Below, piece by piece: positions 4,300 through 32,892 of a stretch of 64,000 nt of DNA (position 1 is its first letter; each line of letters opens with the position of its first letter). The translations under genes were made by a program, and so were the position numbers. The DNA is from Prosthecobacter sp. (GTDB taxonomy: Bacteria > Verrucomicrobiota > Verrucomicrobiia > Verrucomicrobiales > Verrucomicrobiaceae). The stretch is taken from the NCBI RefSeq assembly GCF_034366625.1, contig NZ_JAXMIH010000005.1, forward strand, positions 1-64,000, given 5' to 3'. A model generated the notes under the pieces. The model had not been told where the DNA came from, did not search any database, and saw nothing but the letters and a program-made list of their open reading frames with translations.

Positions 4300-4894
4300 A
4301 AACGTCTTGGAGTTGTTCCTGAAGTTTCTTGCGTGCGTAAAACAGGCGCGACATCACAGTGCCCAGCGAACAAGGAACCGTTGCGGCGATCTCCTCGTAG
4401 GCAAGTCCTTCGACTTCGCGCAGCACAATAACCTGTCGGTGCTCCGGTGAAAGCCTGGAGATTGCCGCCTGGATGCGCTGGCCGAGCTCTGCATTTCGTA
4501 AAGCTGCATCTGGAGCGGTGTCTCCCTTGGGGGTTGTCTCAGCCCCGGCTGCAGCACGGTGTTCCGTGCGTTCGTCATCGAATTCGCCATCACCCTGGAT
4601 TTTCTTCTTTCTCAGCCAGTCGTAACTGACGTTGTGGGCAATGCGGTACAGCCAAGTGTAGAAACCGGCATCCAGTTTGAAATTGGGAAGTGCGCGCCAT
4701 GCCTTAATAAAGGCCTCCTGTGCGAGGTCCCATGCTTCGGTTTCATTCTGGATGAGATGGTAGGTCATGGCATAGATCCTCCCACGATAGCGGGTGACGA
4801 GAACGTCAAAGGCTCGTGTGTCGCCCGCTTGGCTGCGTTTGACCAAGTCGATGTCAGGGACTTCGCCAAGGTCAGTCGCGGCTGAGGCAGGCAT
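4283..4894 (-). CDS. ECF-family RNA polymerase sigma factor
   Basis: From the chosen ATG the protein has 203 residues. Region 2 spans about 26-97 (AFDVLVTRYRGRIYAMTYHL, DLAQEAFIKAWRAL, FYTWLYRIAHNVSYDWLRKK), and region 4 about 140-192 (LSPEHRQVIVLREVEGLAYE, EEIA..PCSLGTVMSRLFYA, a helix-turn-helix). Regions 1.1 and 3 are absent, which defines group-4 (ECF) sigma factors. The frame extends 16 codons further upstream, but MPASAATDLG fits family N-termini better; neither start has a strong Shine-Dalgarno. It is first in a three-gene operon with its likely anti-sigma, so autoregulation is expected. Confidence 0.92.
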   Translation of the reverse strand: MPASAATDLGEVPDIDLVKRSQAGDTRAFDVLVTRYRGRIYAMTYHLIQNETEAWDLAQEAFIKAWRALPNFKLDAGFYTWLYRIAHNVSYDWLRKKKIQGDGEFDDERTEHRAAAGAETTPKGDTAPDAALRNAELGQRIQAAISRLSPEHRQVIVLREVEGLAYEEIAATVPCSLGTVMSRLFYARKKLQEQLQDVYETTL

Positions 4895-4983
4895 GGATGT
4901 TAGTGGCGGAGGATGGACGGCCTTAGACCGGGGAAAATTCAAATCGAAGGCCGTTTGGATGCAAAAACGTGCCGGACGTTGAA

Positions 4984-5481
4984 TCAGGGGATTTTCAAGC
5001 TCTGCCCAGGACGTATCAGATCGCCACTGAGACTGTTGGCGGCTTTGATTTTCGCCACCGTGCTGCCTTTTTTCCGTGCGATGGCAGAGAGAGTGTCACC
5101 TTTTGCGACAGTGTATCTGGACCCGGAGGATTTCTTGGCGGCTGATTTCGATGGGGTCGACTTCTTCTTGGCGGAACTACTGGAGGCCGTGGTCTTTTTG
5201 GGCGTGGCGGAAGCATTGGAGGGGGTCGACTTCTTCGATCCGCTGAAAGCATAGGGGTCTGCAGGAGGTTCCGGCTGCACCGGAGCGAGAGGAGCTGGCG
5301 GCGTCTGATATTTAGGGGCCGCAGCTGACGCGTAGCCACTTTGGCCTGGGTAGGGGTTGTAGTGTCCGTCGTTGCCGTAGTTGGAAGCATAGGGATCACT
5401 GCTTCCACCTTGTTTCGTGTTTTCACAGGAAGCCAAGGCGAGAGAAAGAGTCGTCAGCGCGAATAAACGAAATGCAGTCAT
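4984..5481 (-). CDS. LysM-domain lipoprotein
   Basis: 165 residues. The N-terminus is a lipoprotein signal with lipobox LASC (Cys about 19), followed by a low-complexity linker rich in Gly, Tyr, Pro, then Ala/Ser/Lys/Thr runs. The C-terminal 44 residues form one LysM domain (YTVAKGDTLSAIARKKGSTV, ending RPGQSLKIP). LysM binds peptidoglycan, so this is probably an outer-membrane lipoprotein gripping the wall. There is no catalytic domain. It is transcribed in the same direction as, and about 90 bases upstream of, the ECF sigma gene; no shared transcript is evident. Confidence 0.88.
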   Translation of the reverse strand: MTAFRLFALTTLSLALASCENTKQGGSSDPYASNYGNDGHYNPYPGQSGYASAAAPKYQTPPAPLAPVQPEPPADPYAFSGSKKSTPSNASATPKKTTASSSSAKKKSTPSKSAAKKSSGSRYTVAKGDTLSAIARKKGSTVAKIKAANSLSGDLIRPGQSLKIP

Positions 5482-5710
5482 GATGATGGGGATGTTCAGG
5501 CCTGCGAACCTCCATGGAAAGAGACCAATGCATTAATGAGATCGGGCGCTCCCTTTTCAATGCCAATTTTGTCCGCGTTGCCCTCACTTTGCGATCCAGG
5601 TAGCCGGGCGAAATAGATCGCTTGCCATCTTCGTTCACGCCTGCCCGGCAAATCTCCCGACACAGACCTTGCCAATTCGCCTGCTCTTCCCTAGCTTTAC
5701 GGCCCACCAC

Positions 5711-28245: not shown

Positions 28246-31566
<3,321 letters not shown>

Positions 31567-31685: not shown

Positions 31686-32768
31686 TTACAGGTCGTCGTC
31701 GGAGCAGGTGGCGAGGTTGGAGGACTTCTGATAGTCGGTGACCTTGCCTTCGAAGAAGTTCTGCTCCTTCTTGATGTCCATCAACTCCGCCAGCCAGGGC
31801 AGCGGATTGGTGATGCCTGGGTTCAGCACCGGCAGGCCGCAGCCGTCCAGACGACGGTCGGCGATGTAGTCAGTGTAACGCTCAAATTCCTCGGGGCTCA
31901 GGCCGACGGCGTTCGTCGGCAGGCAGTCACGGATGAACTCCTTCTCCAGTGCCACGGCCTCGCGCATGATGTTCACCAGTTCATCGCGGAACTCGGCGGT
32001 CCAGATTTCTGGATTCTCCTCGACGAGATCCATGAAGAGATTGCGCAGCAGCTCGATGTGATTGCTCTCGTCGCGCAGCGTGTAGCGGAACATCTGGCCG
32101 ATGCCGGGGAACTTGTTCTGCCGGTAGAGGCTGAGGATCATGCCGAACAGGCCGTAAAACTGCGTGCCTTCCATGCATTGGCCGAACATGAAGATGTTCT
32201 TCGCCAGCAACTGCTTGTTCACCACCTGCGTCAGATCCAGGTCGCGGCGCAGCACATGGGAAATGCGGGTGACGAATTCGTTCTTCTTCACGATCGTCGG
32301 GATCTGCTCGAACATCGCCTCGCACTCATGCGGGTTGATGCCCAGGGAGGAAATCATGTACAGCAGCGAATCGGCGTGGATGTTCTCCTCATGCGCATGG
32401 CGGCCCAGCACGAGTTTCAATTCCGGCGCAGTGACCAGTTCGCGGATCACATGCTGGATGTTGTCGCCTACGATGCCCTCGGCGGCGCTGAAGTAGCCGA
32501 TGCCCATCATGATGATCCAGCGCTCGTTCTGCGTGATCTCGTTGGAGCGCCACTGTTCCACGTCCTTCTGCATCTGGATGTCCTCCGGCTCCCAGTGGTT
32601 GGCCTTCATGATCCGGTAGAGGTCATAGGCCCACTGATATTTCAGCGGGAGCAGGTTAAAGGTCATGCTCTTGCGGCCATTGATGACCTTTTTGGCGGCG
32701 AAGGCCGCCTCAGCTTTGTCTTGATCGAGAATGAACTCGCGGTTGCCGATCTTGAATGTCTTTTCCAT
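31686..32768 (-). CDS. nrdB: Ribonucleoside-diphosphate reductase beta subunit, class Ic-like
   Basis: 360 residues of the R2 family. Placing the diiron ligands: E97 (SAAEGIVGDN), E128 and H131 (HEENIHADS), E200 (QCMEGTQF), E234 and H237 (RDESNHIE). The radical-tyrosine position, seven residues after E128, is L135, not Tyr, and the first ligand is Glu rather than Asp. Both are marks of the Chlamydia-type class Ic R2 that uses a Mn(IV)/Fe(III) cofactor without a tyrosyl radical; the surrounding AAEGIVGDNI and LLYMISSLG also resemble that group. It transfers a radical to NrdA. Cofactor assignment is inferred. Confidence 0.95.
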   Translation of the reverse strand: MEKTFKIGNREFILDQDKAEAAFAAKKVINGRKSMTFNLLPLKYQWAYDLYRIMKANHWEPEDIQMQKDVEQWRSNEITQNERWIIMMGIGYFSAAEGIVGDNIQHVIRELVTAPELKLVLGRHAHEENIHADSLLYMISSLGINPHECEAMFEQIPTIVKKNEFVTRISHVLRRDLDLTQVVNKQLLAKNIFMFGQCMEGTQFYGLFGMILSLYRQNKFPGIGQMFRYTLRDESNHIELLRNLFMDLVEENPEIWTAEFRDELVNIMREAVALEKEFIRDCLPTNAVGLSPEEFERYTDYIADRRLDGCGLPVLNPGITNPLPWLAELMDIKKEQNFFEGKVTDYQKSSNLATCSDDDL

Positions 32769-32843: not shown

Positions 32844-32859
32844 ATACTATATATTGCGG
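32844..32859 (-). promoter_or_regulatory. Putative NrdR box, nrdB-proximal
   Basis: ATACTATATATTGCGG fits the published NrdR consensus (acaCwATATaTwGtgt) at 13 of 16 positions by my count. It is about 76 bases upstream of the nrdB ATG. A second box lies 33 bases (about three helical turns) further away, the usual paired arrangement. NrdR would repress the nrdBA genes. The 32769-33137 gap otherwise holds only AT-rich promoter-like sequence and the start of the amidase gene's leader. Confidence 0.72.
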
Positions 32860-32876: not shown

Positions 32877-32892
32877 GCACAAGATATTGTGG
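32877..32892 (-). promoter_or_regulatory. Putative NrdR box, nrdB-distal
   Basis: GCACAAGATATTGTGG matches the NrdR consensus at 13 of 16 positions and is nearly self-complementary. Its 33-base offset from the first box puts both on one face of the helix, as NrdR needs. Confidence 0.7.

What the first reader, a model, noticed from the sequence alone, without database searches (positions are those of the whole stretch)
31686..32768. NrdB lacks the radical tyrosine and has Glu as first metal ligand: class Ic-like (Mn/Fe) ribonucleotide reductase
Metal ligands E97, E128, H131, E200, E234 and H237 align with E. coli D84, E115, H118, E204, E238 and H241. The radical-Tyr position, E128+7, is L135. 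Chlamydia R2c also has Glu at the first position and a non-Tyr at the last, and uses a Mn(IV)/Fe(III) cofactor. The sequence around SAAEGIVGDN and HADSLLYMI fits that group. So DNA-precursor synthesis may not need a tyrosyl radical. Y137, two residues on, might be mistaken for it.
Basis: partly seen in the sequence, partly recalled or inferred. Interest (0 to 1): 0.75.

Follow-up and report, generated by a model that had tools for sequence, protein, structure and literature searches.

The report
Tyrosine-less DNA-precursor enzyme subunit (NrdB)
The only ribonucleotide reductase found in this bacterium has leucine where the radical-carrying tyrosine usually sits, so it probably stores its oxidising power on a metal pair, as the Chlamydia enzyme does; this leucine type was already listed in the literature but belongs to a large branch for which we found no experimental study.

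Summary
Window 31686-32768, minus strand, encodes a 360-residue NrdB. The six metal ligands align with Chlamydia R2c, the first is Glu97, and the radical-tyrosine position is Leu135. nrdA follows, NrdR-like boxes lie upstream, and no other class I/II and no class III reductase was found in the genome, so it very probably works.

Leu135 is not an oddity of one genome. Besides the window gene, 187 aligned relatives from Verrucomicrobiota and other phyla carry the same eleven-residue signature. In a thinned tree Leu rows form one well supported branch, apart from the Chlamydia (Phe) branch. Papers already put Phe, Leu or Val at this site in subclass Ic, so this is a new member of a known kind.

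One refinement: the Leu branch has Thr at the pocket position where Chlamydia has Ile, the position of the class Id threonine that holds its tyrosine away from the metals. The window protein lacks the class Id Lys and Trp. A metal-only oxidant is well supported; Mn/Fe is inferred and untested.

The parts
31686..32768 (-). nrdB: class I ribonucleotide reductase R2 (beta) subunit, 360 aa, Leu-type
   Evidence: NCBIfam PRK07209.1 327.5 bits against cut-off 309; Pfam PF00268 E 2.9e-67
32364..32366 (-). codon of Leu135 (CTG), position of the radical Tyr / Chlamydia F127
   Evidence: 80 of 80 named loci also Leu
32478..32480 (-). codon of Glu97, first metal ligand (Asp in class Ia/Ib)
32385..32387 (-). 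codon of Glu128, second metal ligand
32376..32378 (-). codon of His131, third metal ligand
32169..32171 (-). codon of Glu200, fourth metal ligand
32079..32081 (-). codon of Thr230, pocket position (ligand 5 minus 4); Ile/Val in the Phe rows, Thr191 in class Id of F. johnsoniae
32067..32069 (-). codon of Glu234, fifth metal ligand
32058..32060 (-). codon of His237, sixth metal ligand
28246..31566 (-). nrdA: class I alpha subunit, 1106 aa, one clear ATP-cone (169-255) and two weak cone-like stretches; SCYL, NLCTE, CNLGS, TYYLRT and C-terminal GTCEACQ motifs present
32877..32892 (.). NrdR-box-like site, 3 mismatches to the recalled consensus (matches on both strands)
   Evidence: the three matches in the 64 kb window lie at two sites, both upstream of nrdB; mean 0.09 matches expected per shuffled window
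32844..32859 (.). second NrdR-box-like site, 3 mismatches

Best explanation
This is the working, and apparently only, ribonucleotide reductase of the organism, a class I NrdAB enzyme whose R2 subunit cannot form the usual tyrosyl radical. O2 (or peroxide) oxidises a dimetal site held by E97, E128, H131, E200, E234 and H237. The oxidised metal pair itself, most likely Mn(IV)/Fe(III) as in Chlamydia class Ic, is the one-electron oxidant. The hole passes along the conserved path (W59, D233, Y346 in R2; the Tyr-Tyr pair in TYYLRT of NrdA) to the active-site Cys, where ribonucleotides are reduced. Shown here: residues, gene pair, no other class I/II/III reductase found in the assembly, branch. Inferred from homology: metal-only oxidant (strong), Mn/Fe as the metals (moderate), electron path (moderate).
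For: No Tyr at the site and Glu as first ligand. Best solved-sequence matches are Chlamydia R2c (E 4e-76) and 6y2n (4e-67), then a drop to 2e-38. The predicted fold (pLDDT 82) is nearest to Mn/Fe-loaded Chlamydia NrdB (4d8g, Z 41.2, rmsd 2.2, 322 aligned; the next Chlamydia entries are tied). It is above the curated cut-off of NCBIfam PRK07209.1. The pattern E E H E E H + E D equals the NrdBzc row of a table in PMC6370689 (passages). W59 (Chlamydia W51), Y229 (Y222), D233 and Y346 are the same in 187 of 187 Leu-type rows. PF00268 1 match, PF02867 1, NRDD 0 in the own genome, 96.67% complete. NrdR is encoded in the genome and NrdR-like boxes lie upstream.
Against: No metal or EPR data. The Leu branch is not shown to group with the Phe branch: they are apart in the free tree, and joining them is not rejected (p-AU 0.2). 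Thr230 is the class Id residue, not the class Ic one, and several other positions differ from the Phe rows, so carrying Mn/Fe over from Chlamydia is less safe than the ligands alone suggest.
Confidence: 0.72

Rival explanations
1. Metal-only oxidant, but dimanganese as in class Id (Mn2(IV,III)) rather than Mn/Fe.
For: Thr230 lies at the class Id Thr191 position; a Glu first ligand is shared with Id. Among 374 aligned rows Thr at this column occurs only in the Leu rows (191, the window protein included), the six class Id rows and one R2lox-like row (L290). The 374 rows are a sample, not all R2.
Against: The class Id Lys (first ligand +4) and Trp (+7) are Gly101 and Ile104 here, as Gly and Ile in Chlamydia. 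Class Id keeps the Tyr, which a review calls essential for activity (passage). Sequence and fold are much nearer to Chlamydia R2c than to class Id structures.
Confidence: 0.13
2. A tyrosyl radical forms on another Tyr (Y137, or the branch-specific Y92 five residues before the first ligand).
For: Y137 is constant in the Leu branch proper, though not in the outlying row L108 nor in two tandem copies, which have His. Y92 is Tyr in 188 of 188 Leu rows (window protein included) and in 0 of 49 Phe rows.
Against: Y137 is Tyr in all 15 Phe rows too, the Chlamydia protein among them, where the oxidant is metal-based.
Confidence: 0.06
3. A non-catalytic or partner R2, like yeast Rnr4 (recalled), with the real R2 elsewhere.
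For: A decayed R2 copy with lost ligands does exist beside the intact one in one related genome (L055 3299-4513).
Against: All ligands, W59, D233 and Y346 are intact here, and no other R2, class II or class III reductase was found in the genome. Of 84 sampled genomes with a Leu-type R2, 63 have a single PF02867 match.
Confidence: 0.02

Closest known systems
Class Ic R2 of Chlamydia trachomatis (NrdBzc; PDB 1syy, 4d8f, 4d8g, 4m1i)
   Same: Six ligands with Glu first, no radical Tyr, Glu before ligand 2, W51/Y222/D226/Y338 equivalents, overall fold
   Different: 37-38% identity; Leu instead of Phe at the radical site, Thr instead of Ile in the pocket, D133 instead of His, Q203 instead of Phe, an acidic C-terminal tail; separate branch
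NrdBz group of RNRdb with subclass rule NrdBzc = Phe, Leu or Val at the Tyr site (PMC6370689, passages); Leu/Ile/Val in R2c also cited in PMC3824934 (passages)
   Same: Leu variant foreseen by the rule; ligand pattern as in the table
   Different: The passages seen name no Verrucomicrobiota Leu branch and no Thr in the pocket
Class Id R2 (NrdBi; Flavobacterium johnsoniae 6cwo, Leeuwenhoekiella blandensis 6sf4)
   Same: Glu first ligand; Thr at ligand 5 minus 4
   Different: No Tyr, no Lys at +4, no Trp at +7; distant sequence
6y2n R2 (serial synchrotron structure)
   Same: Glu first ligand, no radical Tyr, second best sequence match
   Different: Phe at the radical site and Ile in the pocket

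Membership tests
Class Ic R2 (NrdBzc) | No Tyr at the radical position (Phe, Leu or Val) | tested here: met
   Leu135; rule from PMC6370689, passages
Class Ic R2 (NrdBzc) | Ligand pattern E E H E E H, second sphere E and D | tested here: met
   E97 E128 H131 E200 E234 H237, E127, D233
Class Ic R2 (NrdBzc) | In one clade with characterised class Ic R2 | tested here: inconclusive
   Leu branch separate (100/98*); joining it to the Phe branch not rejected, p-AU 0.2
Class Ic R2 (NrdBzc) | C-terminal Tyr and relay residues W51, Y222 | tested here: met
   Y346, W59, Y229; also 187 of 187 Leu rows
Class Ic R2 (NrdBzc) | Mn(IV)/Fe(III) cofactor | not testable with these tools
   Needs purified protein
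Class Id R2 (NrdBi) | Tyr kept, H-bonded to Thr | tested here: not met
   Leu135; the Thr alone is present
Class Id R2 (NrdBi) | Trp at first ligand +7 (and Lys at +4 in the studied subgroup) | tested here: not met
   Ile104 and Gly101
Class Ia/Ib R2 | Asp first ligand with radical Tyr | tested here: not met
   Glu97 and Leu135
[quoted passage not shown] not a partner of nrdA | tested here: not met
   Y346 present; nrdA directly downstream

The most novel reading that the evidence does not exclude
The Leu branch is a biochemically distinct subclass. It lost the radical Tyr separately from the Chlamydia-type branch and rebuilt the pocket as Leu + Thr, combining the missing Tyr of class Ic with the pocket Thr of class Id. 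Its cofactor, or the way the metal-bound water and first proton transfer are handled, then differs from both characterised metal-only R2 types.
Probability: 0.22. Interest if true: 0.65.

Novelty: new member of a known kind. Interest (0 to 1): 0.36.

Why it matters
In 63 of 84 sampled genomes with this type no second class I/II reductase was found, so there aerobic DNA synthesis would depend on a metal pair rather than on a tyrosyl radical. The Leu branch gives a large set of environmental proteins (nearest named relatives: Prosthecobacter) for asking what chooses Mn/Fe against Mn/Mn: the ligands are those of Chlamydia, while the pocket residue is that of class Id.

Tried and rejected
A sequencing error as the cause of Leu135 was rejected: CTG needs at least two changes to become a Tyr codon, and relatives agree.

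A viral carrier of the Leu type was looked for. The IMG/VR scan gave 47 R2 loci. Of 43 rows that could be aligned, 36 have Tyr, 6 Phe and 1 a gap at the radical position; 4 loci were too short to align. None has Leu, and the longest and best match is 40% identical to the window protein.

Single or multiple loss of Tyr could not be settled. The free tree needs 4 changes among the three states (least possible 2). Holding Leu and Phe branches together is not rejected (p-AU 0.2), nor is holding the Phe rows together without the two Asp/Tyr rows inside them (p-AU 0.107). Several long branches are present, and the bootstrap had not settled (correlation 0.987). A first IQ-TREE run failed on a thread setting; a second was stopped by the time limit and gave no support values. 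Neither is used. A FastTree run had also put the branches apart.

Distances in the predicted model (L135 to T230, Y92, Y137) could not be measured, because the tool returns no coordinates. Class Id numbering was taken from the F. johnsoniae alignment of a class Id relative.

Rows left out of counts: fragments L128 (two pieces), L129 and L227 (the first three still appear in the table); L001, the window's own copy; in the 61-row tree also L055b, L290 and near-identical rows. L230 gave no R2 row. Not fetched or aligned: R2 fragments in G382 and G369 and the weak hit G257:C97; 5 matches, 6 and those without a locus, except the ten fetched. These unread matches are under 37% identical to the window protein by the tables; their radical position is not known here.

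Full report
What is there. The ORF at 31686-32768 on the minus strand encodes a 360-residue R2 subunit. It passes the curated cut-off of NCBIfam PRK07209.1 (327.5 against 309 bits; it also just passes PRK09614.1-5, 239.3 against 237) and matches PF00268 (2.9e-67). nrdA follows on the same strand at 28246-31566 (1106 aa). It passes PRK07207.1 (1215.7 against 965 bits), has one ATP-cone above cut-off and weak cone-like stretches on either side (E 0.0072 and 0.13, below cut-off), and holds the SCYL, NLCTE, CNLGS, TYYLRT and GTCEACQ motifs, which I read from memory as the catalytic Cys, Asn/Cys/Glu, Cys, radical-path Tyr-Tyr and C-terminal Cys pair. A scan for the recalled NrdR consensus gave three matches in 64 kb, at two sites, 32844-32859 and 32877-32892, directly upstream of nrdB. 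The mean expectation is 0.09 matches, and none of 100 shuffles had three. Two of the three are one palindromic site seen on both strands. NrdR itself is encoded in the genome (192 bits).

The residues. Against Chlamydia R2c the alignment runs without a gap through both stretches with ligands 1-3 and 4-6. Glu97, Glu128, His131, Glu200, Glu234 and His237 are the ligands, and Leu135 is opposite F127. W59, Y229, D233 and Y346 correspond to W51, Y222, D226 and Y338 of Chlamydia (numbering partly recalled).

Sole reductase. The own genome (6.65 Mb, 96.67% complete) has one PF00268 match, one PF02867 match (the family that includes class II) and no NRDD match. The Leu-type enzyme must therefore supply dNTPs unless a second reductase lies in the missing few percent. 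In the phylum sample, 126 of 387 genomes have a PF00268 match. I read R2 from 122 genomes: 84 have a Glu/Leu copy, 13 a Glu/Phe copy and 27 an Asp/Tyr copy; two (G116, G345) have both Leu and Asp/Tyr copies. Of the 84 genomes with Leu, 63 have exactly one PF02867 match and 21 have two or more, so in a quarter of them another class I or II reductase may share the work.

How common. In the phylum sample 85 of 135 aligned rows have the signature E E H L Y E Y D E H Y (the window protein and its own copy included), 15 have Phe (two solved structures included), and the rest are mostly Asp/Tyr. By their titles most are Verrucomicrobiota, nearest Prosthecobacter at 88%, but some are labelled Fimbriimonadaceae (L155, titled a chromosome), UBP7, Planctomycetaceae, Patulibacter and Bacteroidia. 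Searching the window protein in the phyla of four of these genomes gave Leu-type R2 (70% identity or more, full length, centres included) in 15 of 201, 3 of 246, 3 of 198 and 3 of 198 genomes (signatures); the tool does not name these phyla. Some lie far inside single large contigs (for example G916:C1 at 2.54 Mb, G1065:C1 at 2.18 Mb), so they are unlikely all to be binning errors. nrdA lies within 3 kb downstream on the same strand for 167 of 191 Leu rows (own copy included); for 20 none was seen, 17 of which have under 4 kb of sequence downstream; 4 have it farther away. The Fimbriimonadaceae loci L151 and L155 are among those without nrdA nearby.

Branch. In a 61-row tree with both trait columns left out, the 12 Leu rows are one side of a branch (100/98, starred). 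The Phe rows with Chlamydia are elsewhere (91/92, not starred), with two Asp/Tyr rows nested among them beside 6y2n. Whether Leu and Phe branches share one loss of Tyr is open (p-AU 0.2, p-AU 0.107).

Pocket. Comparing 187 Leu rows (181 distinct; the window protein and its copy left out), 43 Phe rows and 82 Asp/Tyr rows, position 230 is Thr in 187 of 187, Ile/Val in 43 of 43, and Ile/Val in 78 and Ser in 4 of 82. PMC3824934 (passages) names yeast Ile269, which I place at the same position (ligand 5 minus 4, ligand numbers recalled), as part of the pocket around the radical. Class Id relatives fetched here (L327-L332; two of the six were compared with PDB, top matches 6cwo and 6sf4) have Thr in this column, and numbering puts it at Thr191 of F. 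johnsoniae, four before ligand Glu195. PMC8463856 (passages) and PMC6754362 (passages) describe this Thr as the partner that holds the Tyr away from the metals. Across 374 rows, 191 of 192 Leu rows have Glu + Leu + Thr. The exception is the decayed copy in L055. Because the Leu rows form one branch, this association counts as one event, not many. The class Id Lys and Trp are absent in the window protein (Gly101, Ile104).

How it most likely works. Without a Tyr at the site, the metal pair must hold the oxidising equivalent. Chlamydia class Ic is the nearest characterised case by sequence and by predicted fold (Z 41; the model was predicted from 24 aligned sequences, pLDDT 82, residues 332-360 unreliable), so Mn(IV)/Fe(III) is the best guess. 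A class-Id-like dimanganese centre is the main rival, because of Thr230.

What is known. PMC6370689 (passages) states that NrdBz sequences with Phe, Leu or Val at the Tyr site were classed as subclass Ic, citing Lundin 2009, and those with Tyr as Ia. PMC3824934 (passages) says Leu, Ile and Val are documented in R2c, citing Hogbom 2010. PMC8463856 (passages) gives Phe/Glu as the Ic pairing and does not contain the word Leu. PMC4118035 (passages) notes Glu as the first ligand in Ic, R2lox and BMMs. PMC9531940 (passages) describes Phe or Leu in class O ferritin-like proteins. PMC9816063 (passages) infers class Ic in the last common ancestor of Chlamydiae. Searches for Verrucomicrobia + class Ic, Prosthecobacter + ribonucleotide reductase, class Ic + leucine and Opitutus + ribonucleotide reductase showed no title or abstract start on a Leu-type R2 in their listings. 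The library lacks most subscription journals, so this is weak evidence of absence.

Noticed in passing
L055 3299-4513 (+), next to intact R2 4541-5647: Tandem R2 copy that lost its ligands (Q, E, R at ligands 1-3; V, R at 5-6) and the C-terminal Tyr (Val there), near the Leu branch: a possible beta-prime like yeast Rnr4.
   Followed up: partly
L103 4403-6229 (+) and L110 3896-5143 (-): Tandem second R2 with full ligands but Asn at the Chlamydia Y222 position; the ORF in L103 is 609 aa, with no Pfam match outside R2.
   Followed up: partly
L319 1501-2517 (-), L320 1426-2418 (+): R2 from the phylum sample of G390 (a MAG labelled Bacteroidia) with Glu/Phe; L319 is below the NCBIfam cut-offs and on a very long branch outside the Chlamydia-type clade: a possible separate loss of the radical Tyr.
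   Followed up: partly
L349 2995-3996 (+), viral contig: Viral R2 with Glu first ligand and Tyr at the radical site but Ile in the pocket: a Glu/Tyr pair without the class Id Thr.
   Followed up: no
L245, L250 (phylum sample of G388) beside 6y2n in the tree: Asp/Tyr R2 nested among Glu/Phe R2, as if the two states had switched together (one clade of the Phe rows not rejected).
   Followed up: partly
G010, G075, G080, G099, G143, G283, G348 (same class; the genome search): Genomes given as 97-100% complete without any PF02867 match; their reductase was not looked for, perhaps class III.
   Followed up: no
L128 3629-4752 (-): Leu-type R2 split over two frames in G330 (frameshift or assembly error); left as it is.
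   Followed up: no
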